The notes beneath the pieces are model-generated. The model saw only the letters and a program-made list of their open reading frames with translations. It had not been told where the DNA came from and did not search any database. A stretch of 64,000 nt of DNA from Bolinopsis microptera (taxonomy: Eukaryota; Ctenophora; Tentaculata; Lobata; Bolinopsidae), in contig NC_087074.1 in assembly GCF_026151205.1 (NCBI RefSeq), forward strand, positions 14,694,667 through 14,758,666, read 5' to 3'. The first letter of the stretch is position 1; each line of letters opens with the position of its first letter. The position numbers and the translations under genes were made by a program. This document shows positions 1 through 28,200 of this stretch, piece after piece.

Positions 1-237
1 TCCTCAAATTATTTGTTATATAGTAGTGTTGAAAGTACACATTAAAAAAGTATATAACAGCACATTGTACTGAATTCAAGCCTGTGTCCCAATATTAAAG
101 TTTGGACAATATAATACACAGATAAATTCTGCAATATGGTTACTGTATGATTAGACACCATTTAAAATATAACTCCACTTTTGACCTATTTGACGGCCAC
201 TTATTTTTTTCATAATCGCACCGGTTAATTTTTCAGG

Positions 238-903
238 GAGTGCGATTACAAAACTAATCGCACTGTTTTGAGAGAAATCGAAAACATATTCAGTGCGATT
301 ACAAAACTAATCGCACTGATTTTTTGAAAGATACTGTAATATCGTGTTCCGCAATTTCCTGTCCATACGCTAACATAAGTTTACAGTATATTAGTTGCAC
401 TAGCGTAATAATAAGTTAATATTATAGCTCAATAGTATAGTGTAAATAAAGAGCCACACGCTGAGGCTACGAGGGCGGTTATCCGTTGAAATGTTAAGTT
501 CGCGTGACCACCGCGTGTGAGTCACAATTGAAGAAGCAAGTGACTTGCCAACGTATTCAATACTCTGAGACCCTATGGGCCATGAGGCTTAGTGTGACCA
601 ACCGCTTCTTTGGTTTTGTTACGGGGCCGGTATGGCAGTTGCTTGTATGTTCTCATGTTGTGGTTCAAATCCAATTCCTGCTGAATCCCAAACAGTGCAG
701 ATCAAGGTCATCGTTAACAGTCTAGTTGTACTAGATTACTGTAACGGTACTTCACAGGTAGTGCGATTATAATCTAATCGCACTGTTTTGTCAGTTGCTC
801 ACAAAAGAGTGTGAATAGTTCACACTCTGGCTCCATAATATGAAGGACTTAATTCTAAATGAAAACCTCGAATATCCAGTGCGATTATTAACTAATAGCA
901 CTG
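238..903. repeat. Cluster of short GTGCGATTA hairpin repeats
   Basis: Four imperfect palindromes lie near 240-264, 291-321, 760-785 and 877-903. Each has arms AGTGCGATTA and TAATCGCACT around a short A/T loop. The last copy has a mutated right arm. No gene is evident in 1-1190. The open frame at 840-1190 is low-complexity and overlaps one hairpin, so I do not call it coding. The copies may be termini of small MITEs, but no target duplication is clear. Confidence 0.6.
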
Positions 904-1194
904 ATCATAACACCAAAAGCGTGGAGTTATACGCTAATCTAACTGCATGTATAATACCATTACACCAGATATTGCACTCAGTTGCGCCTCGTGAAATAAC
1001 TGCAATAATCGAACTCGGCTTCGCCTCGTGCGATAACTGTATCAATTTGTACTCTGCTGCGCCTCGTGCAATTAATAGTGTAATCGAATTGTACGCAGTT
1101 AGATTAGAGTATTATATAATACAGTCAACAAATTATAATAGTAAAATTGTGAGTAAAATCGTAAAAAGGGTAAAAACACTTATTAGATGAAATA

Positions 1195-1533
1195 GCATAG
1201 TGAAGGTGCAACAAATGTTACGAAACACAAATTTCCAAGAGTGTCTGCTTTCCAACTGTTGGTCTCCTTTAATATGAACTTTTCTACCCCTTCTTCCGAT
1301 CTAATCCAGTATATGACCCAAGATAGCGATGGTGTTCAGTGGTTGTTATATGTATATCTGGAAATAGTTCCTTAGCTTTGGTAGCATGCTCTGGTTTTTA
1401 CAATAAACCATGTTTTGTTGGGTTTAGGGTAATACCCATACATGGGGCCATGATCGTTCAGGACCACCCACCATTTCACAAATTGTTCGAGTTTATCCCC
1501 TACTGCAGAGTCATCTGCATACCAAAGCCTGTC
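1195..1533 (-). pseudogene. Reverse-transcriptase fragment of a retrotransposon, decayed
   Basis: Read on the minus strand, the segment encodes a polymerase motif LWYADDSAV. It is followed by a KWW motif, GYYPKPNKTW and, after an in-frame stop and a frame change, a LFPDIHITTT...RYLGSY stretch. This is the palm YxDD region and the following thumb-side sequence of a retrotransposon RT family common in invertebrate genomes. Stops and at least one frameshift show it is dead. It lies just upstream of the first recognised exon of the double-PHD gene and probably marks the edge of that locus. The element class is inferred from motif memory only. Confidence 0.7.
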
Positions 1534-1711
1534 TGTGATATGTGTTTAGTTCCCTTTCTGATTCTGTGTCTGGTTCTGTCTGTTTTACCAACAATCCTCC
1601 CCTGTATCCATCAACGCGAACGTGTTGGTTATTTTGTTTATGTCGTAAGTCCAAGATTCAAGTCCAGGCATATTTCAATGCATCTTATATCATAATTATT
1701 TTCCACCGAAG

Positions 1712-4700
1712 GAACCTGAAGCTGCAAAAAGAGAAGATTTTACTGAAACGGAAGATACTGGCCGTTGAGCGGGAAAATAACAGCCTTAAAGATGAAATCG
1801 GAGGACTGGAGAAACAGCCACTTGCTAATTCCGCACAAGCTCAGCTCAGAGCGCCCCATTCAGGTAAAAGTTTAAAAGGAGACTTGTTTGGGCAGTTTTT
1901 GGCGGTTTCGATTTCCCCTCTATTTTGGTAGTCTACTCTGAAGTTTGGAGTAAACTGCCGACTGAGCCGTCGCCAGATATTGCTAGTTTTTGGTACTTTG
2001 GTGTATCGCAACGCTCTTCGCCTTCGCGCGTGATCGATCGTCGTGACGCGCGCGCGCGCTCGCGCGCTTTATACATCGATCGAATTTAGCTAAGTAAAAT
2101 CAGATAGCCATTATTTCGAAACTTTATTAACAGTCTTAGCTTACTGATTATTATTACGAAATTATTATATTCCTTGCTCAACTGTCATATCTTAATTTCA
2201 TTGTTACATCATACTATATAATTGTTTAGAATATCTTGATCAATGAAATTTCACGATAACCGTGCAATCATTGCTTTGTGCCAATATTCAACAGCTGCAC
2301 AATTAATGAAAGACTTAAATTGTACAGAAAACCTTACTGAAAACTTTGCAGTAACAGGTGTAAGGGTACCATCAGCACAGCTCCCCCTACGACTTAACAA
2401 CAGCTATAACAATTTACACAGGTACACTAACAAATACGTCCGTGACATTTTGATATGTATACTCTTGTTGAAGTTCCTGTAATGATTTGATTGGTTTTTA
2501 TTCACTCTTAGACATTTGTACTTCAAAAAGCATGTTAAAATCATTCCCTTAACACACATGATATTATACGAAACCCACAAATATTATGGTTATTGACTGG
2601 TTTGTTATTTCAGACAGCATCAAGCAGCTAAAGCTGCCCAAGTACAACTACAGCAGCAGCAAGTTGCCCAGCAACAACAGGCAGCCCAGCAGCAGCAGCA
2701 GAATCCCCATCTCAGACCTAACCCCGCCGCACAGAATATGATAAACAAACATTTTCAGCAAAACTCTCACTCACAGCAAGGTACCTGGTTATTTATATTT
2801 CCATCAACACGATTACATTTCTTTGGGTGTCCAAATATACTGTCAAAGTACAACTGAAAGTAAGCAAAGAAATTAATTTCAGTGTCTCGATACCAGAACC
2901 CAGCCGCAGCTGCACTTGCACATCGACTACAGAACCCACATTGGCCCGCTCCAAACAGGCAGTACCAACCCCAACACATACAGAAACCTCTCAACCATCT
3001 CCCCAACACGTCTTCCTACTACACTCCCCAGCAACAAGCGGCCCAAAACGCCGCCGGTCAACATGCTGTCGGTCAGCTGCAGCAACAAGCAGCAACTCAA
3101 CAACACACCCCTGCACCCGTCCCCCAACCCTCGCCCTCCCCACACTTGGTGCAGCACCACACTCAGGTCCAGCAGCAACCAGCTCATCAACCAGCTCATC
3201 AACCAGCTCATCAACCAGCCCACCAACCAGTCCACCAACCAGCTCATCAACCAGCTCATCAACCAGCTCACCAACCAGCTCACCAAGTAAACCGTCTACA
3301 ACACGTGTCAGCTGCAGTCCCACAGCGACATCCAAATCCAGGGTCCTCTAACCACGCTACACTGGCGGCTGTGAACAAGATCCTAAATGGGAGCAGTCTC
3401 TCAGGAATAGCCACCAGTCTCTCAGCTGCAGTTACTAACTTATCCAGCGCCCACAACACCCTCGTCAATAACCACGCTGGCATGCACGGCAGCCAGGCCC
3501 GGCTTGTTCAGGCTCGGCCCATGTCCCAGCAGCAAACCCCGACTAACACTGTGAACTCAGTTAACACAGTTAACACTACGAACAATGCTAACTCTGCTAA
3601 CACAGTTGAGGTTAACTTGGTGAAAAGTTTATCTAACCAGGGATTACATCCTCGTGTTAACGAACAACAAATTAACGATCTCATCAAATCAGCTCTTCAG
3701 AAAGGTTTGTTTAGGTCCTTAATGTTTACCTAATTTACTTGCAAACGTCGACCATTATCAACAAATAAAATTACGATACCAAGGTTTTTGTCCAAGTTCT
3801 GACTAGAAATAATACCCAGGATTTTCAGGAGGTTACGAAAACTTGTTGGCACAGATGCAGGTAATGGCTCGTACTTCTTCCAGCACACCCACCCCAATTC
3901 CCACCACGGAGGCTGTGTCAAGTAGCAGTCTGGAAACTAGTTCCGCTTCTGCTACCGCTGACATCTCACCTACCACCGCTGGTAGGTCTATTTCAAGTGC
4001 TTGAGTACTTTTAATTTTGATACAATTAGTTGGGCGGAACTTTCAGGGGCTAGGTGGGATAGTGGTTAGAGCATCCGCCTTCTGCGCAGAAGGTTTAAGG
4101 TTCGAATCCCAGTGTCACCTAGTCTAGGCCCTAGGGAATAGCTAAAGATCCATTGGATCTATGCGATCTCCTCGGTCGACTCAGCCGAATGATAGGAAAC
4201 TTGATTGAATGAGGAGGGCCAGGGGAACCTGTTAAAATTTCAAAAAACTTCCTAGGAGCCACCTTCAGTACATACTGTAAACATAGTGCTATTAACTATT
4301 AACTATTCAGAAACTAAATATCACTTATTCAACCCAAAAAATCTAAAAAGCTTAATCCAATATATTAGAAATCAGTGTTAATGAATTATAAAAGTCTATT
4401 TGGACGTGTGTGATTTTACCTCAACTATTCTACTAACTGGGTACCAGGGATTAATACCCGCTCTTATCACAAAAACCATTGTAGAAATAGCGTCCCAGTT
4501 TCACAAAAAATGACCGAATAGCAGCCCGTGTTTTTTCAGGAGTTGCCAGCATGGAAGTTGTTGAGTCAAGTGCAGGAGCTTTAGGAACATGTAGTACAGT
4601 ACAGATCAGTGGAGCTAACGAAGATGTGGAGGTAGATATCGGTATCCCTGACAACGACCAAACTGTTAGTTGCAGAACTCTTGATCTAGTACATTTGATG

Positions 4701-6720
4701 ACTAAACTAGACACTTCAGCAGCATGAAACTAATTTTTTACAAGCGCTCGCGCTCAGATTTCTTAAACATAATCGCTCCGTCGGTTCATGGGATGTGACA
4801 TTACCCTTATGACATGTTTCAGGCAATGGATTACTCCGCCAGTTTCACCAACCACCACACCACAAACGACGATCTGGAAACCTTTACAGAGCTCTTCGCC
4901 ATGTCTGACGACCCGCTCAACGTGACGTCACCCACCATGGAGATGCCGAACGGTAACTTGGCGTCAGCTGAACATGGCGCTACGTCAGAGACGGTTCAGC
5001 CAGCCTTCGATTTAAATAAGCTTGATAACGCTACATTGGAACAGCTGATCAGCTCCGTGTGCTCCCTTTGCTCCGGCGACTCAACGGTAATTCTTACTTT
5101 TCTTTAATTCTTGGCAACTTTTTTCTTGCGTTTCCGACTACGATTAGTCTTATTTAACAATTGTACTAAACTTAACCATGATATTCTGTTTTTCTGATGA
5201 ATTTATTGTAAAGGTTTTCACTATTTTAAAACCCAAATATCTACTAAAACACTACCACATCAGCAAAACAAGACTGGGGTACGAGAAGAACTGTTGACTT
5301 GTTGTGACTGCAGCAATAGCGGTAAGATTTGATAGATCTGAAGAGGCACTCATTTTAATTTGTTTTTTAAATGAAACAGCTATGGATGCTTTCAATGTAG
5401 AGAATATAGGCTCTTTTAAAAACTTTGATGCAGAGTCAGTTGCGAATGACTGGGCAACATTTCCACTTATCACACCTGTATCTAACACCATACCAACAGG
5501 ACACCCCAGTTGTTTACAATTCTCCGCGGAATTAACAGAAAAAGTGAAGACCTACTCGTGGCAGTGTATCGAGTGTAAAACGTGTGTGCTGTGTGGCCAG
5601 CTGGGGGACGATAACAAGCTAATGTTCTGTGATGAGTGTGACAAGGGTTTCCATACTGACTGTTTGTCACCTGCATTGTCGGAGGTACCTGAGGGTGAGT
5701 CTCTTCTTTTAGATTATTACTCTCTGAGAATCTTGTTATAACCTCAGTAACATAACCAGAGTTTATTTAATTTTTATTTGACGTATTATAATAGCTAACA
5801 TGCACATTATGCATGTTGGTCCTTTGTGTTGTTTAGTTGTAACATTCCAGTCTATCTTAAAAATGAAAACAAATGATAGATGATCTAGAGTAGAACTAAT
5901 TAACTAACCACAACGCGCACGCAGATACCTAACTTGTTTAATTTTTATTCTCTAAAATAGTTTATGATTGTTTATCCTCTAAAATAGTTTATAAAAATGT
6001 TTACCCCTCTGAAATAGTTTATATAAAAACCAACCCCTCAGGTAATTGGTCATGTGTGTTCTGCAAAGGTATAAGTGTACCCTCAGCGGGCATCATCGCC
6101 AGATCCAGTTCAAACTCACGAGATATTCTTCTACAGAAAGCTAACAAAGTTATTAATAATGGTGAGTTCGTATTTATGTAATTTCCGGATCGGAACAGTG
6201 TTTATTAGCTGATTAGTCACATAGTTAATTAGTTACTGTTGGTTGTTCGAAATATATTGTTTTCACAAAGGAAACTGCTCTCTTTAATAGTAAATAGTCG
6301 ATGTTTCTATATAACATAATATTCATGCTCTCAAATTGAAGTAGTAGTTAGTTTCATTGAAACGTCGACTATGTATTATTGAACTTCGCTAAAAAGAGCT
6401 GTTTTCTTTGTTGCAACAGCGTGAATAATAGAAACTTCTAACGACCCCATATTTAGTTCGTATAAACATGCTAATTATCTTCTGAGAACTATATTGAAGT
6501 CTATCAAACATATTAATTGCAAATCACATATCCTAGCACCACATTCCAGCTATCCTAACACCACATTTCACTAGCGTCCACAGACAAGGGTCCAGCCGAG
6601 ATGATGCAGAAAACAGAAGAGATTATAGCGTCCCTGCTAGCTACAGGTCGCAAGAGAGCAAAGTCCAGTGATAACGACAAAGATGCACCCTCTTCTAAAC
6701 GTGTTCTCCATGACATGTGA
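1712..6720 (+). CDS. Gln-rich nuclear protein with C-terminal double PHD finger (KAT6/DPF-like), no MYST domain
   Basis: Exons by splice site and phase: 1712-1863 (coiled coil, rich in Lys/Glu/Leu), 2296-2421 (or a first exon starting at ATG 2243), about 2617-2784 (Gln-rich), 2883-3704 (Gln/Pro/Ala-rich with AHQP repeats), 3829-3981, 4540-4631 (donor uncertain), 4823-5086, 5264-5321, 5500-5694, 6042-6161, 6584-6720 (stop TGA). The spliced C-terminus carries two adjoining PHD fingers. PHD1 has CSLC, CCDC, the [11 protein letters not shown] signature, then WQCIEC. PHD2 has [14 protein letters not shown], then WSCVFC. The NSGHPSC...WQCIECKTC layout is that of KAT6, DPF and PHF10 proteins, whose tandem PHD reads acylated or unmodified histone H3 tails. 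Here the protein ends soon after PHD2 with a short basic KRAKSS tail. No acetyltransferase follows in the next 1.5 kb. The true 5' start is unknown. The role is inferred as a chromatin reader or coactivator subunit. Confidence 0.85.
3170..3295 (+). repeat. 12-bp coding tandem repeat (AHQP)n
   Basis: About nine to ten copies of a 12-bp unit, CAACCAGCTCAT with small variants, sit inside the 2883-3704 exon and encode repeated AHQP tetrapeptides (one reads VHQP). Period 12 keeps the frame, so copy-number change would be tolerated. Confidence 0.85.
4050..4260 (+). repeat. tRNA-derived SINE in an intron
   Basis: Inside the intron after 3981, positions 4050-4122 look like a tRNA. The 5' CTAGGTG can pair with 3' CACCTAG, there is an A-box-like GGATAGTGGTTAGAGC, and a clear B box GGTTCGAATCC. 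The anticodon stem CCTTC/GAAGG leaves a 6-nt rather than 7-nt loop and the T stem is weak, so a functional tRNA is unlikely. About 130 bases of non-tRNA body follow, which is the layout of a SINE. A real tRNA gene is the alternative. Confidence 0.55.
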
Positions 6721-8254
6721 TCAGATGCCATTCATTAGTTAATTAATTATTTAATTAACTGGTTGATTATTCGAACGAGAGAAAGTGGTTGAGAAATTGA
6801 GTGTTCCGCCGAGAAGTGGCGTGTTCTGCAGATGATGTATTTAGTTTTGAGGACGTTTAAATTGTTTAATAGTTGCAGTATGATGAATATATAATAGAGA
6901 TAAACAATGTAAAGCATGATGTGCCACCATTTACAACTACCGAACTAGTTTGCAGTGGCAAGATTCCATATAGTTAGAACCGTCCTAACTTTTTGATAAA
7001 TTTATTCCTTCTAAAACTTTTCATAGGGTTAAATGAGTGATGTTTCTGACGGTTCATATTTTGTTATAGATATTACGATTTTTATTTGTTGTTACAAATT
7101 TAAATTTACGAAATAGAAATTAAGGCTATGTAATTCTTTTCATCGTATTTCGGTTGAAATTAGGATAAGATTATGGCTTAAAAATTCGCGGACTCATGAA
7201 TATTTCTTCTCTTTCGACTTAAATCTTATGAACAGATAACTTAATTTTACTGATAAACTTAAAGATTTGCACATTGTTATTTAATTCAGGTAAGAATTTT
7301 CTATCAGAGATGCGTTAAATTATCAGATTAGTCTATACAACTGGTTTTCAAATTTAAACTATTTGTCGATGATCATCCTTGAAATAAAATTTTATTGACT
7401 CCGCTATTACAAAATTCGGCGTATTAAGAAAAAGTTATAGTTTGTTAATCTAACAATGGGTCAACTTATTTATTTTTCCTCACTTTCCCTATTAAATAAG
7501 TTATAAGCCTAGTTATAGTACAGTAGACTTTTCCTATATTCAATGGTACTGATAGAGTAATGATAGGTTTATTTATCTGTCAGTGAAATGTTTGGTGAAG
7601 GGTAGAATATCTCCCAACTTTTAGTAGTGAGCAATCTGTAGCCGAGAGAAATAATTACATTTTTGAGATGCCAATATGATACATATCGCGACATGGTGAT
7701 TTACTTTAGTCATATTAGTCATGATGTGAATCAGTAATATTTGATGGTATTAAGAAGCTATGAAGTGTAAATTTAGATACTTTGTGACCAATTGATATTG
7801 TATTTGTGCTCTTCTGAATTAATTACAAATATTTTATGATGCCCGTTGTAACCTATACAGTATACATTGATCACTAATAAATTGTTTTCTCACTTTATGA
7901 ACACACAGCGACCAGATATTTAAATTAATGAGCATTAAAGGGCGCAAAGCTCACATTAATTATTCGATTGAATTAGATTACTCTCGCCACTGGAAACGGC
8001 AGTATTACAATTGAAACGCATCAAGTAAGTGTTGCAACTGGGGAGATAATACATAGTTGACAATAAAACATTAACCACTAGTTCAAAGATACGACGTGGA
8101 AATTAAAACCACATATGAAGCTCAATGCAGTCCCCTCAACAGATAAAGAAATGCACAAAAAACTTCGGGATTATAATTTTCCGAGCAGAAACAGTTCATA
8201 AGTCCAGCTAACCCATCTAGGAATATATCTTTCGTGTCCTCGGAATTCTTCGAC
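6721..8254. other. Convergent intergenic spacer, no gene seen
   Basis: This AT-rich interval lies between the plus-strand double-PHD stop codon and the minus-strand protease stop codon. It holds the 3' UTRs of both genes. AATAAA-like A/T stretches are present, for example near 7382 (AAATAAAAT), but no polyadenylation site can be fixed by eye. No convincing frame, RNA gene or repeat was seen. Confidence 0.5.
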
Positions 8255-11200
8255 TTATACTCTACCGTTCTTTTTCTTCTTCTTTTTCTTCTGCTTCTGC
8301 TTCTCCTCTTTCTCCACTTCCTTTTCCTCCTCCTCATGATCATGTCCGTCACCATCAAAGTGTTCGTCGTCCTCAGCACTGTGATCATGTCCGTCACCAT
8401 CAAAGTGTCCATCCTCCTCGGCACTGTGATCATGTCCGTCATCATCAAAGTGTTCGTCCTCCTCAGCACTGTGATCATGTCCGTCATCATCAAAGTGTCC
8501 ATCCTCATCAGGACACGCGCATCTGGAGAGAATATCCTTTTCACCCCAGGCTCCAGCTTTACAGGTTAGAGACGGAGGACCCGTCATGGTGCAACCTTCC
8601 GAACATGACAGGGTTGCAACAGTGCCCTCGATCAGCTCACCGTCAGTACTGTACACTATCGTACCGTCTTTTACTTTGTACTTGATATCGAAACACGTTC
8701 CTGAAAGCGAATGGTTTTTTAAGTTGTTTGTCAAAGCTAAGGAGACTACATTGTATAATATATGTTGTGGGGGCTGCACTCCCAATTTATTAAATAATTG
8801 CCATTCTCTAATCTCTACCAACCAATTCCTGGTGTATCAAAGTACTTTAAACCGATACAAATATACTTATATTATGTACTTTAATGTAGAACTAGAAGTG
8901 CACATACTTGTTCGACTACAGAGTCCTCTAGCTTGGTATGTCTGTGAGTTCCTCATCGTCCAGTAACCGTCGTTCTTGTTCAACAAACCGTACTTGCCTT
9001 CACCCGTCTTCCGGGTGTAGTTAAAGTAGTTAACATGCCAGCACTTGTTGCTCCAGTGGTAGTGCCCACACTTCTCGGGGTCGCTGATGGATTGAATTGA
9101 ATGACACGTTGGTGGAGGCCTTCTTCCGTAAAATTCCAAATGCAAGAATTTTGTGACTGGGATATTGGTAGTCCTTAGGGTTCTTAAACGTATTTCGTAA
9201 GCAGCCTAGAAGAGGCTGCTAATACTGTAATTTCTACACTGGATAGGGGCGTGAATAAACCGAAATATGTGAACGATTCCTTAATTTGTCAACAATGCAT
9301 AATAATCAAAACAACACATTTATACCGTTAGATATGCTCATTTGGAAGACATGCAACAGTTAATCCTGATTTCTGCACTTACGTAACTCCGATATGGAGC
9401 AGATTGAATTTATCGTCAGACTTGACTCCAGGGAATCTTGCGTTTACCATGTTCACAACCTAATAGGAACAATTTGTTTAACTACTGCTTCCTCGCCCTA
9501 ACACTTAATTAAAGTACCTTTTGTGGTTGTTCAGAGATGTTGTGATCACAACTGAACGGACGTAGGGTTGCATTTAAGAAGGGGTGACACCGTTTGTGAA
9601 AAGTGAAATTGACTGCCAAGCTGACTCTCAAAAACAAGTAGTAAGCTATCTATCATATTGTAACTGAGTATGGTCTATGTACATAGTACATTGTACAAGT
9701 ACAGGTAACAAGTTCTAGAACTTACCTCGTTGTTATGCTGTACGGTGGGGATAACAGCCAGGTCCCAGCCGGTCTCAGTTTCTGTGTCCATGGCCTTGCA
9801 GGACGCCTGGCAAAGAGCTCGAGTCGTTGGTTTTCCGCCGCTACAGAATTCGTATTCCACCTCTGAAAACGTGGTGTGTTAAACCTAAGGTACCGTGTAC
9901 AATGTAGACACCAGTGTATTAAGTTTAACATGTGTACCTAGCAACACAGTTACCAGTATACCAAGTACCTAGCAACACAGTTACTGGTGTACCTAGCAAC
10001 ACAGTTACCAGTGTACCAAGTACCTAGCAACACAGTTACCAGTGTACCTAGCAACACAGTTACCAGTGTAACTAGCAACACAGTTACCAGTGTAACTAGC
10101 AACACAGTTACCAGTGTAACTAGCAACACAGTTACAAGTGTACCAAATGCATAGCAACACAGTTACAAGTAAACCTAGCAACCAGTGTACCAAGTACCTA
10201 GCAATACAGTTACCAGTGTACCTAGCAACACAGTTACTGGTGTACCTAAGAACACAGTTACCAGTGTACCGTGTACCTAGCAACATAGTTACCAATGTAC
10301 CAAGTACCTAGCAACACAGTTACTAGTGTACCGTGTACGTAGCATAAAAATGTACCTTGTCTCGGAGCTATAAGGACAGAGTAGGCGTTATCGAAGAGTC
10401 TGCAGGAATTCATGGTGGGTATTCCCTTTCTATCATAGTTTATGTATCCTAAGTCGCCCCACCATACTCCGTAACTGTAGATAAATGGCATTTGTTTTCA
10501 GTCGTCCTTTACACTTTAAGTGGTAGTGCCCACAAATTATTGAACAAATAGTTTCCAGTTTAGCAGGCATTTGTTAAGGTTGCAAAAGTTAGTAGCTAAA
10601 ATTGTTTGAATAAGTTTTTCTATTTTTTAAAACTCTTAATAAAGTATAATAACCTAGGGTAGCCCCAACCATTAGAAGGGTTGTCGTGGTGATATGGAAC
10701 AATTAAATCATAAATTAACGTACCTTCCTCGTACTCTGAGATATGTTTCAGTGTAACCAACGAGAAGCTGAGCGTGAGCCACAGGCTGTGATGCACACAC
10801 AGGATCATCGTACAATCCTATCAAAATATGGGATGCTAGAAGTTCAAGTATACTTTAATATTGTATCGATATTATTGCATAGCTATTGTATTAGCTATAT
10901 AATATTAATATAGTAGTTAGAAATAACATGTTACCTGCATCAAGAGGCGATAATTCCTAATTTTATGAAACTAGTTATAATTATTCTGCGTAATTAACTC
11001 GAATAATTGTAAATTGCCCCTCAAAGCTTTTACAATTACATGTAAGTACTAAGTTCTTAATGATCAAGAATCAGTGACAAAATCAACCAACCATGGGTGT
11101 AGCCAAAGTAGTTATCGCTGATATACCCTCCAAAAGCAACCGGGCTGTGTCGGAGTCCCCTCATCAATCCGTCCGCGGTTTTGCTCAGGGGATACCAGTC

Positions 11201-12952
11201 CTGTAAATATGCGTTCTTGAAGGCGTTCCTCTTTTTATTGCGGATATCCATTGTCCATTTGCACGGCTGATCTGAAATGAGGTCGTTCATTGTTTACGCT
11301 ATTTAAAATGCAAATATGGTCTTGAGTTTAGTATATATATACATATATATATATATAGCTTAAAGTTAATATTAATCTAGAGTTGTTAACCTTGAAGATG
11401 AACCGGCTGTAAGCAGCATTATATCCTGATGTTCATACTTATTAAGTTGGTTTATAGCTGTAGCTGTATGAAACATCTAAAACTAGACTGTCAGGACGAG
11501 GAATCTTGCCCGGGTTCAGTCCTAAAGTCATTAAAGGGCTTGAAATATGAAACGGTTTTTTAAAAGTATCTTACAGTCAGCAGTGAGCGGCCAATCCCCC
11601 TCACTCATGAGGTACTGGCGATCTTTGGTGATCTTGTAGCCCTGATTAACAGTACCACCTGCACACCCGCTGTACGAAAAGGTGCAGTCAATGAAGTACT
11701 GCTTCGAGTAGACGACAAATTCTCCTGTCAGCTTGTAGTACAGTGCCTCCAAAGTTGCTGCCTGAAATTGATCGGTTATTGTATTAATATCTTATCTCAT
11801 TTTAAGATTCAACAGTTAACCAGCGTTACTGGCGTTGCTAAATAATATGTTTGTATGAAAATTAAACAAATACGGTACTTATAAGGTGTTCAAGACTCGA
11901 TCGTGTCCAAATTTGAAATTATAATTTTTCTATTTTATACTAATGTTGTACACTAAGACTTACAGCGGGGAAGGACCAGCAACTTCCGCAACTGGCTTGA
12001 TCCTGCGGTCTAGACATTCCCAGAGTTTTCTCCCAGTACTGGTATTCCTTTGGCCCTTCACCCGGATTCCAATTTACTTCCTCCGGACTAGGATAGTCTC
12101 TTTTGTCCAGATCCAGGGTAAGGCCTTCCATCCTTTTCATTTTGTGGTTGTCTTCGGCGGAGCGTTCGTTCACCAATAGGGTCAAGTTACCATTTCGTCG
12201 AGTACGAGACACAAGTTCTTCGTGCTCCTCGTCATTCTGGACAGAAGGGTAATCGTTTAGCGGATGGGAGTGTTTATACTTAAGATCGCAAAAAATTCAG
12301 CGGATTCGAATTTTGAGTTATTTGATCTAACAAATTTTAAGTTATAATACTAACGACTAATACACGATGACTTATTATTTAAATTATGTATCAACATGTA
12401 CATGTAAATTACAATTTAAATAGTCATTATATCCTATTGGCGATATCGAAGTAATTTTAATTTGTTAGTTCCTCTAAATTACTAATGTTGTTGAGGCCGA
12501 TGACATAATTTTATTACTGAACAGCAATTTAATGGTGAATCAACAGTTCTAACTTTAGAACAGAAATTTAATCAATTACATACATTGACAGCAAATCGGT
12601 TGAGAGCATCGAGCATAACTCCAGTTGAGGTCTCGTCATGACCCCTCTTCATTCGAACAAGTCGATTGTATCTCTCACTGGAGATTTTTAGTTTAGTACA
12701 TTGTCATTGATTTATCAAATTATAAACCCTTGAATCATAAACCCTTGAATCATAAACCCTTGAATCCGGAGCTAACGAAACAAACAACAACTGAACAGTG
12801 GACTGGTTTTTTAACCTGTGGTCTCGTTTGTCTCTAATTTGTACGCCCCACTTTTTTATCGTGTTCTTGAAGAGCAGGTTGGTGTCGTCAATGGTGCTTT
12901 TTGAGAGAGCCAGGGCTAGAACAGCCCCCACCAGTACTACAAACCGGTGCAT
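8255..12952 (-). CDS. Secreted papain-family (C1) peptidase homologue fused to C-type lectin and CCP domains
   Basis: Eleven exons (high to low): 12816-12952, 12584-12677, 11964-12236, 11575-11761, 11092-11271, 10724-10817, 10356-10474, 9726-9862, 9383-9459, 8908-9119 (acceptor may be 9122), 8255-8700. All phases join, giving about 651 residues. Residues 1-17 are a signal peptide. An I29-like propeptide follows (RFAVN region). The C1 domain has QDQASCGSCW with catalytic Cys near 163, a GCAGG motif, and VAHAQLLVGY with catalytic His near 305. The usual NSWG reads GSYG (residues 321-324), so the Asn that orients His is absent. Residues about 362-500 resemble a C-type-lectin-like domain (WDLAVIPTVQHNNEV, LHIGV, YWTM, ARGLC). 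Residues about 505-560 resemble a CCP/sushi module. Then come four 15-residue HFDxDGHDHSAEE repeats and a Lys-rich end. Likely secreted or vesicular. Activity is doubtful. Confidence 0.88.
8325..8512 (-). repeat. 45-bp coding repeats for Asp/His-rich tail
   Basis: Four copies of a 45-bp unit in the last exon of the lectin-peptidase gene encode HFD(D/G)DGHDHSAEEDE-type repeats. His/Asp-rich runs of this kind often bind divalent metal, which here is inference. Period 45 preserves the frame. Confidence 0.85.
9925..10345. repeat. Minisatellite in peptidase intron
   Basis: Between the exons at 9726-9862 and 10356-10474, about fifteen variable copies of a unit close to CTAGCAACACAGTTACCAGTGTA fill the intron. 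Some copies carry an extra CCAAGTAC. The right edge ends within about 10 bases of the exon's donor. The long open frame across it on the minus strand is an artefact of the repeat. Confidence 0.85.
12718..12768. repeat. Three tandem copies of AAACCCTTGAATCAT
   Basis: Three near-identical units of about 16 bp, ATAAACCCTTGAATC, are in the first intron of the lectin-peptidase gene. It is a short simple tandem array with no further function apparent. Confidence 0.8.
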
Positions 12953-15900
12953 CCTCTAGTGGAAAAAAGGTTAAATGTTATATTATAAAATCTAAGCAAG
13001 ATCTACTGTGGTTTTTATCAAATTTTGAGGAAAATATAATAATGCTAGATAGTCTATATTGCGGTTAAACTTAAATTTAAAATAATAATAGTTAATACTA
13101 GCAAACTAAACGAAATGGAGATTAAGCCTCTATTTCGATATATAACCCGGATTGCTTTTAAAGTTAAACGTAAGCAGTAAGCTCAATGTAGACTGAATTA
13201 AAACGGGGAACAATGATAAACACCTCTACTGGCCAGTGAACCGTAGTCTATTTGATATAAAAGCCCTTGAAACGAACCCATTCTAATGCCTAAATAGTCA
13301 AGTTCATTATAAAACCTTTGCATAAATTAAAAAGTAATAAAAAGGGACACCTCAGCTTGAAATTTACTATTTCATATAACATGAATTGAACTTGAAGTTC
13401 AACCTGACCGCCCTTTGTAGTCACTTTAAAACATACATTTAAACGTCTATCTATTATCAATCATGGACAAGGCTATTAATATTATGGACAATTGAGTAGT
13501 GACGTTATAACAGCTTATAAATTATAAGCACCACCAATCTTTATCTAAGGTAAAATATTGTAAACGCACAATTTAAACTTAAAGTCACATGAGTGGCTAA
13601 TAGCTGCAGTGGCATACCTACGTCAGCTTCCAGCTTTGAAAGAGCCTTTTGAGTTTTGAATATACTGCTGCGGATAAATATAATGAATAAGCTTAAGCAT
13701 AATATGCCGGATATGCTGCATATCCGGCTGCTACTTTAGTCTTATAGCTCTAAAGTTGTCCAAACAATATGTAAATATTCATAATCATGCCGAAGTAAGT
13801 TATACTGCCTTGCTGGTCCCTTTTCATCGTTGAAACTATTCATTTTTAGAACAAAGGCCATACGAGGGCCGAACATGTCGTGAATGATAATGATAATGGT
13901 TTGTTGCCATCAGTACCGCGGTGGAAACGTTTCATTGTCAAGTGTATCACAATATCTTATAGCCCTATGGCCTTTAAGTATAATAGCCATATTACGTACG
14001 CCTTAGAGAGACAACATATAGAACAACAAGGTACGGTAATATTTTGCAAATAGTGCGATCCTGCGACTTATTAAAATTGTTTAATGTGCTGCAATTTAGA
14101 GGGGAAAACTACCTCCATTAAGCTGAGAGTGAGCAATTCGCCAAATTTTCAGTCTTTAGGTTGGATTATTCAGCAGCGTAGTAATAATATATAACGTTGG
14201 CGTTAAATTACACGGTTGTCGAGTTTAACACAACAAGTAACTTACAAGGTTAATGTCCCACACAGAGTTTCCTGACGATTTCAAATTTTTAATTCTAGAA
14301 TTACCCTCGTAGAGGTTTTTACAATTACATGGGTCAGAATGAGCTGGTGCATAATTCGGCAGAGTATTCGATATTATATTAATTATTTATTATGCAACAA
14401 TAACATTATATTCCAACACATTGCGTGTATAGACAATCATGCTTGCAAACTATAATATGGTATTGTGACTAAAGTAACTCAATTTCAATCTGTTAGTGTT
14501 AAGGGATTCATGTGATTCAGCTCGACGAGTGAATCGTTTGCCATAAGATTCACCCTTTTTCGATTTTTACCAAAAGAGAGTGAATCTAATTCAACGTTCT
14601 AATTCTATACTGAATAGAAGGCAGTAGCAGAAATACCGAAGCAATATTGCAGCCAACTCATGGAGAAAATTGAAACATTGAAACGCTTTATATAAGGGAC
14701 TGTAACGAGGGCATGTTTTAACATTTAATTTTGACTGGTTGACATCAGGCGTTCTAATTGACTTAATTAAGGACTATAATTTAAGAATATAAACTGAAAT
14801 AGCTGGAAAGAGAACGTTGCAGCACCCCCTCGATACCCAGCTGCAAATGTTGAGCTTTTTCATGGACCAATTGACGAGTATAAACTTATATGATGTATGG
14901 TACTTAACCAGTGAACACGCCCAAACCTTATATATTTAACAACAATTATTAATTAATTATTTTACAGAGGGGTGTTAATGGTGATAAACTTGTCACTTAT
15001 AGTTTAGGGTTGACATGTGCTCAAATTATAGCCTGAACCACATCAATTACCGTCTTTGAAGGGCAACGGAACTTGCCTCAAAACTGCAATTACAATTAAT
15101 GATAATTGACATTTTCTGACAACTATTATCATCTTTTAGAATAATGATATGTTTAATGTTGTGAGGTAGGTTGCTAATAAACTCAGAAAATGGGTTTCAG
15201 TAGCATCAGACTCAGAAAATGGGTTTCAGTAGCATCAGACTCAGAAAATGGGTTCCAGTAGCATCAGATTCAGGGTAAATACCAGCCGTCTACTGCGATA
15301 TAGTTTTATAGCCAGGCAGAAGATTGAAGTCAGAATTGAAGTCTAAAGATCCCGGGATCATAAAAACTAGAAATACACCTATCTTATTCTTAGTTCTTAC
15401 CGAGCAGGAGCAAAAGTCACGACATTAATATCTTGATAGAAGAGTTGAGCAACGTTAAGACCTAACTAATGTCAAAAGTGAGTCGTAAGAATATTCCAAC
15501 ATGGCCAGCCCTTAAAAGTACGCCCAAGTCTTTAAGTTTGTCTGGATTTTGGGTGGAATATTATCACTGAACACCACTCGCCTTTGCTGCGAATATTTTA
15601 AACAAAGCTCCAATGATCAAACTGACGCACAGGCACAAAGGCACGTTTCTGTGAATTGTGCTGACGGTCAATCAATTTTTGTCATTAACTCCTGATAGAA
15701 AGAACTGCTAAAACTTAATTACGATTTAATTAACATTTAATTATAATCATTGTCAGCAGTTCGGTCTTAATTATTCAGAAAGAATAGTTTAAGTTTAACA
15801 GACACATCGTTAGTATAAAATATATGAGCTACATAATTGAATGAGCTCTCCAAAATTATGAGTTTGACTGAAGGGGTGCGGGCGGTACCTTTATAACTTA

Positions 15901-16278: not shown

Positions 16279-16990
16279 AACATCAGGACTGATTATATAA
16301 ATGGTTCTTTAACATTCGCTTGAAGCAGTTGGTATCAGTAATACATCTCAACATCAGTGGAAGAGAGTTCCATGCAATCGGTGCATGGCTTGAGAAACGT
16401 CTGTCATCAATTTTGGACCTTTTATTCTTTGGTACCTTGAGCATGAGATGGTCACCAGGTCTCTTCGACCTGGTCATGGTGTTTGAAAGTTATATATCCG
16501 CTACATCCACATCCAGTAGTGCTTTGAGGTAATCAGGTGCAGTATCGTGAACTGCTTTGTGGGTTAATAGACAAACGTTAAAGAAGATTCGTTGGTCTAT
16601 AGGGAGTATGTGGGCCTTCTTATAGAAGGGAACCAAGTCTGTGGTTCTGTCTTCTATGTTATAGATGAAACGAACTGCCCCATAAAGGGTGGATCTAAGC
16701 TTGTTTAATCTGGTCTTGGGTAGATTCATGTATAGAGAATTACAGTAATCTAATATAGATATAACCAGTTGTTTCACCAACATCAATTTAATGCCTTCAT
16801 CCAGGTAACGACCAATAGTTCTCAGGTTCATCATTGTCCAGCTACATTTCCTTTTGACATTATTGATCTGTCTTCCCATATTTAAAGTTTCATCAAATTT
16901 GACACCCAGGCTCTTCCAGCTATCTCCTTTGCACTCGGTAGGTAGAATTTCAGTGCTTCCAAATTGCAGTCTGACACTGAGTTCACACTA
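16279..16990 (-). pseudogene. 3' part of a LINE reverse transcriptase (CR1/L2-like), 5' truncated
   Basis: On the minus strand, 16490-16990 reads through LGVKFDETLNM, then LVISILDYCNSLYMNLPK, then HILPIDQRIFFNVCLLTHKA and APDYLKALL. After a frame change, 16283-16477 gives RFSSHAPIAWNSLPLMLR and FKRMLKNHL. This is the C-terminal thumb and tail region typical of non-LTR retrotransposons of the CR1/L2/Jockey type. The frame change and missing 5' part make it a dead-on-arrival copy. Confidence 0.85.
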
Positions 16991-25200: not shown

Positions 25201-28200
25201 ATTAATTTGCTTGTAAGAATTGTTAACGTTATCAAGTAGAGGTGAGAGCCCTTTTCGACTTATCACTATATTTCATTGCGTTTGTCATTCCCGAAACAAC
25301 GACGAAATGCACGTGTTGTTACTGGATATTCATCATATGAAAAGTAATCATATGAACACGACTGACGACAAACTATTATCTTCCTCATCCAATATCTTCT
25401 CCTTTTGTGTAGAGACAAAAGGAGAAGATCCGTGAGTTTATGCTACTTCTATTGTAAGCAAACAATGCTGTGTTATATAATGTTGAGTATGAATTAATTA
25501 ATGCAGCTACGTCAAGTTTAGGTCATCTTCAGGGGAAGAAAGTGAAATACATTACGTATATTATATTATTTGCTCAATTGGTTACGTAGTGAGTGCCATG
25601 ATCGATAGAACCTATATTGTGCTTCACAGTTACCAGTTTTTTCTGCCAGGAATTGCTGAAAATCGAAAATTGTCGTCGACAATCCGTAGAATATGATTTC
25701 CATTTTACTTTGGATTGTTTTAATTTTGAATCTTGAGTTGTTTTTATATATAACAAGGTGTGTTTGCCAAACACGGTTCAATAGTTGCTTTCAAGTGGTT
25801 CTTGTGCAGTTCCAGAAAAACCATAATTGAATGAGATATTAAGTTGTTTTGTTTAATTCTACTTACTATAATTTTATTTATCATGTTTGTAGCATGTAGT
25901 GTTTACAAAGCATTGTTTTATAGCTCACATACCAGTACAAAGGCCACTTCATCTCGTGATATTTTGAATAGGGTATTCTTTGAAATCTTTATGAAGAATT
26001 TATCAAAATTACGACCATATGCTTTCCTGTGAATGAGACTCAGTCTTTTCTAAGACAGAGAATGATCGTGTCTTCAATCCTTTAAGCAACCACGTCCACG
26101 ATATAGTTTTATCGAACTTATATTTGATTTAAACTGACTTTATTGCAGATATCTATTTATGATTCAACATTAAAATACGAATGGATATTTATTATTTAAG
26201 CCTCTTAATCATCATCATTCAGGTTTTAGCCATGAAATTTAAGTTTGTTGAATCGACCAACTTCACGACGGTGGAGGACATCAACCTGCACCTGCACCTC
26301 TCTGAGCCCGCTTACGTCGGCCTGGTGACCTACCACTCCATCGCAACCATATTCGGACTAATCGGAAACCTGGTGGTCCTGATTGGCTCCCTTAAGTTCC
26401 ACGCTATCGCTGTGGATAAGATCTCTACACTGCTAGTAGAAGCGCTTGCAATACTGGACATCCTCATAGTGGTGACCTTCTCAGTACCGGTGTGGGTGAC
26501 TCTACTTCTCAGAAGGTGGGTCCTAGGTTCTGTGATATGCTACATCCAGGGGTTTGCTGGATTCTCCTGCTGCATGATAGAGATGACGGTTATCCAGGGC
26601 GTGTCTATTTACCGGTTCTACGCTCTCTCCCACCCCCTCTCTGCAAGGACTCTGACTTGCAGGCTAGCTAGACGCATTATACTGGGTATAACAGTGTTTA
26701 TAGCTTCCTATATGCTGTGTATACACTTCATGGGACAATACTGGTTCTTCTCTCCCAATCTCCTGAGTTGTCAACCCTCGGGGATAACAGATCCTCGGAC
26801 CTACATGGTGGTTTACACTGGAGTTGCTACAGTTCTCACCATGGTCCTCCCTCTCACAACTATCATTCTAGCCAACATTGGGATCCTCGTTTGTGTCACC
26901 AAGAGTAACTCTCAGAAGCAGAAAAGAGAAATGAAGCAGTGTGCTTATAAAGCTGATGATAAAGAGCATAAGATCAATTTAAGGAGAAACCTTCCCGGCA
27001 AGAAAGCCATCATCACAGTCTCCTGTATCGCCTGGGCATTTGTCATCTCCGTCACTCCAATGACCATAAGAATCCTTCTCCAGATCAGCCAAGTCAGTAT
27101 GGACTCCTGTTTTAAGGTGATCTCTATAGAGGCTCTCTTCATTAACTCCATATCAAACCCCCTAATCTACACCATTACAAACCAGAGGTTTAGAAACTTC
27201 ATGTACAAGATATGTGGTGAATTCCTGCACGTGCTCCGCACAGGCAGACGGAAGAGTGAGTCGTTCTCGTCCAGCTGGGCACAAAGTCACAAGATACTGG
27301 ACTCCAGGCAGAGACTGACTAGGATGAATCTGAGCAGGAGTGCCAGCTCCCGGACCCAGGAGAGCCAGGCTAATACACCCTTGACACCTCTAGCGGAGAG
27401 CAAGGAGATGAGGACACCTCTCGGACTCACTCCTGAACAATGAAGCACATGATGACCCTCAGGGCCCAAGGGTAACCCTCAGGGGTGATCCCTACAATCC
27501 CTGGTACAGAACAAGGAGTATGAACCTTGAAACAGTCCTCTTGAGTTTCAACTCGCAAGTTTCTACCCTCAGGGGGCAAGTTTCTACTCTCAGGGGGCTT
27601 GTTACCATGGTAACATGATAACCATTGTCACAATATTACAATTTTTGACTCCTTGAAAACAATATGAAATGACCAGGATAAGACGAAAGATATGTGTGAT
27701 CTGATGAAAAAACCATTCCAATAAACAAAAGACAAAACTTATAAATAAAACGTTTAGTAAACTCACATGGATTTCTCGTCGAGAGCGGAGGTAATTTGTT
27801 CCTTGAGTAGCTTTTAGTTTCTCGTCCCGTTCAGTGACCTCTTTCTTGGTCATCTTGTGACCCTCCGCAAGTTGCTTGGCGTGCTGCGATGTTAAACGTA
27901 TGTCAACATTGTTTAAAAAACTGGATTTGTATCGTTATTTTGGAGTGTGTGCTAGTTGTGCGGTAGTGCATTTTTCGATTTTAGCGGGCTTTTAAAAATT
28001 CCTGGTATCTCTGTTCGGTAAGATTGCAGGATAGTACAGAATTTTTACTGTAATGTGTTTTGCCGATAACTCCCTGAATTTCTCATTACAGAATATATAT
28101 GTGTAAGCTTGATTTGGAGCGATGCCCTAGGTAAAACGTTGTTAAATAGAAATTTATTTCATACTCAAGATTCAACTTTAAAAGGTTAACTTGGCTCTTT

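What the first reader, a model, noticed from the sequence alone, without database searches (positions are those of the whole stretch)
8255..12952. Papain-family peptidase fused to C-type lectin, sushi and metal-type His/Asp repeats
Eleven exons join without phase conflict into one secreted protein: I29 propeptide, C1 peptidase, C-type-lectin-like region, CCP-like module, four 15-residue HFDxDGHDH repeats and a Lys-rich end. Most papain-family enzymes end at the catalytic domain. Adding two glycan- or protein-binding modules suggests a targeted or adhesive role, for example in immunity, digestion or secretory granules. The lectin and sushi calls rest on motif spacing, not alignment.
Basis: partly seen in the sequence, partly recalled or inferred. 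Interest (0 to 1): 0.8.

Follow-up and report, generated by a model that had tools for sequence, protein, structure and literature searches.

The report
Comb-jelly papain with lectin-sushi tail
A comb-jelly gene encodes a probably secreted papain-type protein-cutting enzyme carrying two binding modules (C-type-lectin-like and sushi) at its end; it belongs to a small family with the same layout, one member of which is an intron-free copy that confirms how the pieces join.

Summary
On the minus strand, eleven exons (12952→8255) give a 639-residue protein: signal-peptide-like start, prodomain, C1 peptidase, C-type-lectin-like domain (CTLD), sushi/CCP module, four HFD(D/G)DGHDH repeats, Lys-rich end. 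Exon 10 starts at 9083, not at the site I tried first (9122). That exons 8-11 belong to the gene is shown by an intronless paralog on the same chromosome (552 aa) with the same domain order and 55% identity. Seven further multi-exon paralogs share most intron positions and phases. CCP is confirmed; CTLD is confirmed for the family but not by Pfam for this member alone; I29 is not confirmed. The genome is a ctenophore's, probably Bolinopsis microptera. The CTLD is bounded by phase-1 introns (8 of 8), a mark of exon shuffling. Catalytic Cys, His and Gln are kept in 9 of 9 members, but the papain Asn175 position is Ala or Gly in 8 of 9. The His/Asp repeats were found only in this gene. Most likely it is a secreted, substrate-targeted cysteine protease; activity, ligand and tissue are untested. 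Within my searches I found no description of this architecture. New variant of a known kind, moderate interest.

The parts
12816..12952 (-). Exon 1: ATG, hydrophobic signal-peptide-like start, beginning of prodomain
   Evidence: GT donor, open frame; signal peptide is by eye; matching start in the intronless paralog
12584..12677 (-). Exon 2: prodomain (ERY...NRF)
   Evidence: the intron after it is in 8 of 8 multi-exon members
11964..12236 (-). Exon 3: rest of prodomain and start of C1 domain, with Gln19-like Gln and catalytic Cys (11979-11981)
   Evidence: Gln and Cys kept 9 of 9
11575..11761 (-). Exon 4: C1 peptidase (highest identity of the C1 exons to L001 when aligned alone, 79%)
11092..11271 (-). 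Exon 5: C1 peptidase
10724..10817 (-). Exon 6: C1 peptidase with catalytic His (10774-10776); Gly at the Asn175 position (10726-10728)
10356..10474 (-). Exon 7: end of C1 peptidase; followed by a phase-1 intron at the domain border
9726..9862 (-). Exon 8: first part of C-type-lectin-like domain
   Evidence: family-level Lectin_C
9383..9459 (-). Exon 9: middle of C-type-lectin-like domain (HIGV where the others have W(I/M)G)
8908..9083 (-). Exon 10 (corrected start): end of C-type-lectin-like domain; followed by a phase-1 intron
   Evidence: acceptor CATCAG at 9084-9089; the 9122 acceptor adds 13 residues
8255..8700 (-). Exon 11: CCP module, His/Asp repeats, Lys-rich end, stop
8513..8698 (-). 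Sushi/CCP module
   Evidence: Pfam Sushi 20.9 bits alone, cut-off 20.7; at E up to 1, 8 of 9 family members hit Sushi, best 1.8e-8
8337..8511 (-). 45-bp tandem repeat, 3.9 copies, 91% match, coding four HFD(D/G)DGHDH units
   Evidence: one match in the genome, this gene (5 candidates scored, E up to 0.01)
8255..8336 (-). Acidic then Lys-rich C-terminal end
9932..10334 (.). Minisatellite (24/55-bp period) inside intron 7

Best explanation
This is a member of a ctenophore family (nine loci found) of papain-family (C1) peptidases in which a C-type-lectin-like domain and a CCP module were joined behind the catalytic domain by exon shuffling. The protein is made as a secreted zymogen. After the prodomain is removed, a Cys-His (dyad-type) active site cuts proteins, and the CTLD-CCP tail holds the enzyme on a target surface or matrix such as prey, mucus, microbes or tissue. 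Shown here: gene model, domain order, family, shared introns, amino-acid constraint on the modules, retention of Cys/His/Gln and replacement of Asn175. Inferred: shuffling as the origin, secretion, zymogen step, proteolytic activity, binding role. Guessed: the site of use; extracellular digestion or defence by gland cells is my first guess, because ctenophore digestive proteases are partly cathepsin-like and unidentified (PMC6733828, passages). The His/Asp repeats are an add-on of this gene that might bind metal or sense pH.
For: Exon joins and frame; exon 10 fixed. Intronless full-length paralog sister to this gene with support 100/99. Nine loci with the same order. Shared intron positions, with phase-1 introns at the C1/CTLD and CTLD/CCP borders in 8 of 8 multi-exon members. 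Window gene against paralog: dS 2.36, dN 0.29 in C1; dS 2.64, dN 0.28 in CTLD. Pfam at E up to 1: C1 9 of 9, Sushi 8 of 9, Lectin_C 5 of 9 full proteins. PDB profile searches: the CTLD profile finds C-type-lectin-like proteins, the CCP profile CCP-bearing proteins, complement ones first (60 of 102 shown). Predicted prodomain-plus-C1 fold of the paralog superposes its C1 part on papain-family structures, Z 26.8-27.4, rmsd 1.9-2.6 over 206-215 residues in the 50 rows shown. Cys25, His159, Gln19 kept 9 of 9. Asn175 is non-essential and its replacement not uncommon in papain-like proteases (PMC8244254, passage).
Against: No transcript, protein or activity data. Asn175 position lost in 8 of 9, including this gene, and Trp177 is Tyr in 9 of 9, which could mean weak or no activity. 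I29 not detected. This member's own CTLD gives no Pfam hit, and 0 of 9 members has the recalled Ca2+/sugar motifs EPN/QPD or WND, so sugar binding is unlikely to be of the classic kind. The CTLD structure prediction failed (pLDDT 38.6). Sushi and lectin terms are over-represented among colloblast candidate genes of Mnemiopsis (PMC6278862, passage), so a tentacle or adhesive role is as open as digestion.
Confidence: 0.6

Rival explanations
1. Pseudoprotease: the C1 domain no longer cuts and serves as a scaffold or decoy, while the CTLD-CCP tail does the work, as in the catalytically dead papain relatives TINAG and silicatein (recalled).
For: Asn175 position Ala/Gly in 8 of 9 and Trp177 to Tyr in 9 of 9, whereas 12 of 12 other C1 proteins that I chose from this genome keep Asn. 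No I29 match.
Against: Catalytic Cys, His and Gln are kept in 9 of 9 members, at 43-55% identity of the others to the intronless paralog; dead papains usually lose the Cys (recalled). C1 is as constrained as the CTLD. Asn175 is non-essential (PMC8244254, passage).
Confidence: 0.25
2. Innate-immune sensor protease: CTLD and CCP recognise microbial surfaces and switch the protease on, a cysteine-protease counterpart of horseshoe-crab Factor C, which combines CCP, CTLD and a serine protease (recalled).
For: Same kinds of module with a protease in one protein. CTLD proteins, some with sushi, are a diverse set in Mnemiopsis (42 genes) and were discussed as potential immune receptors (PMC11797021, section 6 part 1).
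Against: No expression or binding evidence; no cascade partner sought; module order differs from Factor C (recalled). The part of PMC11797021 that I saw names no papain partner for CTLD in text or figure legend.
Confidence: 0.12
3. Artefact: a papain gene and a separate downstream CTLD-CCP gene wrongly joined, or transcripts ending after the C1 domain.
For: Intron 7 holds a minisatellite and no transcript data were available; a truncated isoform cannot be excluded.
Against: The intronless paralog has the two halves in one open frame, and eight multi-exon members share the phase-1 junction intron at the same residue.
Confidence: 0.03

Closest known systems
Cathepsin L-like C1A peptidases (papain, cathepsins L/S/K)
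   Same: C1 fold, Cys/His/Gln of the active site; best PDB sequence match is a tick digestive cathepsin L
   Different: Asn175 replaced by Gly, Trp177 by Tyr; CTLD, CCP and repeats added; propeptide not recognised as I29
Marasmius oreades agglutinin (fungal chimerolectin, PMC8244254, passages)
   Same: Lectin fused to a papain-like protease; third triad residue is not Asn
   Different: MOA's papain-like domain is suggested by its authors to be convergent with papain, and its lectin is of another fold (recalled); here the protease is a true C1 and the tail is CTLD plus CCP
C1A with fused lectin domain in a prokaryote (Cwp84, PMC10380794, passages)
   Same: C1A domain with a lectin-like domain in one protein
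   Different: Bacterial; the lectin-like domain is not a CTLD and there is no CCP (recalled)
26/29 kDa peptidases (LolA fold + C1A, PMC10380794, passage) and granulin-tailed plant papains (recalled)
   Same: C1A with an added domain
   Different: Other domains; no CTLD or CCP (recalled)
Horseshoe-crab Factor C (recalled)
   Same: CCP and CTLD modules with a secreted protease zymogen
   Different: Serine protease, other module order and more modules
CTLD-sushi proteins of Mnemiopsis leidyi (PMC11797021, section 6 part 1)
   Same: CTLD combined with CCP in a ctenophore
   Different: No papain domain is mentioned in the part that I saw

Membership tests
Papain family C1A | C1 peptidase domain by sequence and fold | tested here: met
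   Pfam 7.9e-29, 9 of 9 members; fold of paralog L001, Z about 27 to papain-family chains
Papain family C1A | Catalytic Cys25 and His159 with oxyanion Gln19 | tested here: met
   9 of 9 members
Papain family C1A | Asn175 completing the triad | tested here: not met
   Gly in this gene; Ala 6, Gly 2, Asn 1 of 9; non-essential by PMC8244254 (passage), so the C1 call stands but 'classic triad' does not
Papain family C1A with I29 prodomain | Recognisable I29 inhibitor domain | tested here: inconclusive
   Pfam 0 of 7 cut-outs at E up to 10, 0 of 9 whole proteins at E up to 1; hhalign to six own-genome prodomains (5 of the 6 proteins hit I29 at E up to 0.01, 4 over cut-off) prob 6.4, E 0.0057, control E 0.65; similar R..NxF..E pattern
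C-type-lectin-like domain superfamily | Significant match to the CTLD profile | tested here: met
   Family level only: Lectin_C 7 of 8 cut-outs at E up to 10, best 1.4e-6; of four members looked at singly, L004 29.4 and L003 22.7 bits are over the cut-off of 22.6, L001 16.6 is under it, this gene has no match
C-type-lectin-like domain superfamily | WIG motif and conserved terminal cysteines | tested here: met
   Four cysteines at matching places 9 of 9; W(I/M)G(V/L/I) 8 of 9, HIGV here
Ca2+-dependent sugar-binding C-type lectin | EPN/QPD and WND motifs (recalled) | tested here: not met
   0 of 9 members
Sushi/CCP module | Four-cysteine, one-Trp module above Pfam cut-off | tested here: met
   20.9 bits, cut-off 20.7, when cut out; 16.5 in the whole protein; 8 of 9 members at E up to 1, best 1.8e-8; four Cys and the Trp invariant in 9
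Class 1-1 shuffled extracellular module | Phase-1 intron on both sides of the module | tested here: met
   CTLD: phase-1 introns at both borders, 8 of 8 multi-exon members; CCP: phase-1 intron before it, none after in the window gene as it lies in the last exon
Chimerolectin (MOA type) | Active protease plus lectin that binds sugar | not testable with these tools
   Needs enzyme and binding assays

The most novel reading that the evidence does not exclude
Ctenophores evolved, by shuffling class 1-1 CTLD and CCP modules onto a papain, a family of surface-targeted cysteine proteases with a rebuilt Cys-His active site (Asn175 and Trp177 replaced), an animal counterpart of fungal chimerolectins or a cysteine-protease analogue of Factor C, used in extracellular digestion or innate immunity; in this gene a His/Asp repeat array adds metal- or pH-dependent control.
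Probability: 0.35. Interest if true: 0.65.

Novelty: new variant of a known kind. Interest (0 to 1): 0.5.

Why it matters
It shows a papain joined to CTLD and CCP modules, with phase-1 introns at the joints, in a lineage argued to be sister to other animals (PMC10232365, title and passages), so complement-type modules were coupled to a cysteine protease there. It supplies candidates for the unidentified cathepsin-like proteases of ctenophore digestion (PMC6733828, passages). The one Asn-bearing paralog (L007) beside eight Ala/Gly members is a natural test of what Asn175 does in a papain.

Tried and rejected
Wrong joining of two genes: rejected by the intronless paralog and shared junction introns. 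First acceptor for exon 10 (9122): replaced by 9083 after alignment to the paralog. I29: looked for by Pfam, hhalign and alignment; left open. Structure prediction of the CTLD of L001 failed (pLDDT 38.6) and is not used; fragment alignments A5 and A9 were misaligned and dropped, A6 and A7 were replaced. The prodomain in the second model did not superpose convincingly: the proform structures listed align over 323-351 columns at rmsd 11.2-12.2, and the VIA-align rows span mainly model residues 97-318; nothing is concluded from that absence. Prokaryotes: 80 of 349 relatives were listed; the listed matches end at or near the end of C1 (several begin in the prodomain, L026 at residue 6, not followed up) except four that run past residue 360, L030, L092, L096 and L101; I looked at these four and L031, and saw no CTLD-CCP tail. 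NCBIfam: no match for 2 proteins. Repeat array elsewhere in the genome: none. Organism: the first iGluR query was not telling; a second one ranked Mnemiopsis ML032222a (name's species recalled) and 4zdm (Pleurobrachia, recalled) first. Papers: ten searches, some on other questions; no listing names a C1-CTLD-CCP protein, but most papers were seen only as listings. Passages of PMC11452194 (placozoan secretory cells) held nothing on this architecture.
Full report
What is there. The gene lies on the minus strand, 12952 to 8255. Eleven exons with GT..AG borders join in one open frame. Guided by a paralog, my own spliced aligner moved the start of exon 10 to 9083; the first choice, 9122, added 13 residues that do not align to the paralog. 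The protein has 639 residues: a hydrophobic start, a prodomain, a C1 peptidase, a C-type-lectin-like domain (CTLD), a CCP module, four 15-residue HFD(D/G)DGHDH repeats (a 45-bp tandem repeat, 3.9 copies, 91% match) and an acidic then Lys-rich end.

Organism. The window lies in a 264.65-Mb assembly of 232 contigs, of which C1 to C13 reach at least 14 Mb by the coordinates and lengths seen. A glutamate-receptor fragment from it has as best PDB matches ML032222a (a Mnemiopsis name, recalled) and 4zdm (Pleurobrachia, recalled), ahead of NMDA receptors (60 of 204 shown). PMC11797021 (table passage) gives Bolinopsis microptera 265 Mb and 13 chromosomes; PMC10232365 (passages) describes 13 chromosome-scale scaffolds. 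So it is a ctenophore, probably B. microptera; scaffold counts differ (232 here, 346 in that table).

The join is real. Searches (exons 8-11; exons 1-7) found an intronless open frame at C3:16319622-16321280, minus strand, locus L001, 552 aa, with all domains in one frame. It is sister to the window gene (support 100/99) and 55% identical. Because its sister and the other members carry introns at shared places, it is best read as an old retrocopy, in effect a natural cDNA (inference; no transcript was seen). Seven further multi-exon loci were modelled: L002, L003, L004, L005/L006, L007, L008, L009. Intron positions agree to the residue and phase: the introns at L001 residues 78, 147, 209, 269, 300, 339 and 469 are in 8 of 8 multi-exon members, the one at 46 in 6 of 8, 410 (phase 2) in 7 of 8, 385 in 4 of 8. 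Weak points: the L003 and L009 models lack their 5' end and the L005/L006 model has doubtful small exons. For these reasons L005 was left out of the CTLD alignment (8 rows) and L003 and L009 out of the prodomain alignment (7 rows).

Module borders. The introns between C1 and CTLD (339) and between CTLD and CCP (469) are phase 1 in 8 of 8. Class 1-1 modules are the mark of exon shuffling in animal extracellular proteins (PMC8001218, passages). This is the best account of the origin; no donor gene was sought.

Domain calls. C1: Pfam 9 of 9, this gene 7.9e-29; the predicted structure of the L001 prodomain plus C1 (mean pLDDT 77.5) superposes its C1 part on papain-family chains at Z 26.8-27.4. CCP: Sushi in 8 of 9 at E up to 1 (L001 is the one without); this gene 20.9 bits when cut out, cut-off 20.7, and 16.5 within the whole protein; the family profile finds CCP-bearing proteins, complement ones first. 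CTLD: Lectin_C in 5 of 9 full proteins at E up to 1 and 7 of 8 cut-outs at E up to 10, best 1.4e-6; this gene is the cut-out without a hit, and of the four seen singly two pass the curated cut-off. The family CTLD profile matched 22 PDB sequences at E up to 10; 21 carry names I know as C-type-lectin-like proteins, one (TRACeR-I) I cannot place; the strong E-values belong to multi-CTLD proteins and sum over weak single domains, and the best single-CTLD chain has E 0.004. The recalled Ca2+-type sugar motifs are absent in 9 of 9, so 'lectin-like' is the right word. Structure prediction of the CTLD failed. Prodomain: no I29 match in 7 of 7 cut-outs at E up to 10 or 9 of 9 whole proteins at E up to 1; against six prodomains of the same genome (5 of those proteins hit I29 at E up to 0.01, 4 over the cut-off) hhalign gives probability 6.4, E 0.0057, against E 0.65 for an unrelated control. 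I call it a prodomain by position, not an I29.

Active site. Gln19, Cys25 and His159 are kept in 9 of 9. At the Asn175 position there is Ala in 6, Gly in 2 (this gene and L001) and Asn in 1 (L007); Trp177 is Tyr in 9 of 9. In 12 other C1 proteins that I chose (not at random) from the same genome, Asn is kept in 12 of 12. PMC8244254 (passage) says Asn175 is important but not essential and that replacements are not uncommon. So the family probably works with a Cys-His dyad, or is weakly active; a dead enzyme is the main rival.

Selection. Between this gene and L001: C1 dS 2.36, dN 0.29; CTLD dS 2.64, dN 0.28; CCP dS 2.19, dN 0.65; whole 2.72 and 0.36; for the prodomain dS is saturated with dN 0.49. 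L008/L009: whole dS 0.07, dN 0.025, but in their CCP dS 0.03 and dN 0.022, too few changes to judge. The modules look constrained, the CCP least in the window/L001 pair. These are simple Nei-Gojobori estimates and dS is near saturation.

What is special to this gene. The His/Asp repeats were found at one place in the genome, this gene (5 candidates scored). The other eight loci end differently. Two extra CTLD cysteines and HIGV in place of WIG are also its own (L005's doubtful model has one other extra cysteine). The repeat resembles a metal-binding or EF-hand-like loop by eye only.

How it probably works. A secreted zymogen-like papain is brought to a surface by its CTLD-CCP tail and cuts there. 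Ctenophore extracellular digestion shows cathepsin-B-like and tryptic activities whose enzymes are unidentified (PMC6733828, passage), which makes digestion a fair guess; CTLD and sushi combinations in Mnemiopsis are discussed as immune (PMC11797021, section 6 part 1), which makes defence another; sushi and lectin terms are over-represented among colloblast candidate genes (PMC6278862, passage), which makes an adhesive or tentacle role a third. None was tested.

Known or new. The parts are all known; the order C1-CTLD-CCP was not found in the passages that I saw of two recent papain surveys (PMC10380794, PMC10318531), in section 6 part 1 of PMC11797021, or in the listings of my ten paper searches. 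No eukaryote genome or proteome collection other than the window's own assembly could be searched here, so absence elsewhere is not shown. In prokaryotes 80 of 349 relatives were listed; their matches end at or near the end of C1 except four, in which I saw no CTLD-CCP tail. In the same genome other papains carry ShK tails (4 of 9 scanned at E up to 0.01, 3 over the cut-off; 9 of the 12 fetched were scanned), so modular papains are not rare in this animal.

Noticed in passing
G000 (own genome): 154 C1 matches (exon-level; 150 of 281 candidates scored); many of the top ones cover nearly the whole domain in one open frame. 4 of 9 scanned proteins carry a C-terminal ShK match (L016, L018, L022, L023; L023 under the cut-off).
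   Followed up: partly
window 9932-10334: Minisatellite of 24/55-bp period in intron 7.
   Followed up: no
window 12718-12766: 15-bp repeat (3.3 copies, 97%) in intron 1.
   Followed up: no
window 26163-27443 (+): Single-frame rhodopsin-family receptor, Pfam 7tm_1 2.7e-23.
   Followed up: partly
window 16490-16987 (-): 165-aa frame resembling a retrotransposon polymerase piece by eye; no Pfam hit.
   Followed up: no
L008 and L009 (contigs C1 and C11): Two family members nearly identical (dS 0.07) on different large contigs: a recent interchromosomal duplication.
   Followed up: partly
L014 and L020: Intronless C1 genes with long Asp runs between prodomain and catalytic domain.
   Followed up: no
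L030 (Myxococcales): Bacterial C1 peptidase with a long modular tail containing DxDGDG-type repeats.
   Followed up: partly
L026 (Bacteroidales): Best prokaryotic relative; its match begins at residue 6 of L001, so it may share the prodomain region.
   Followed up: no
window 12953-12975: An acceptor-like site (TTTTTTCCACTAG) just before the ATG, as for a 5' UTR intron or trans-splicing.
   Followed up: no
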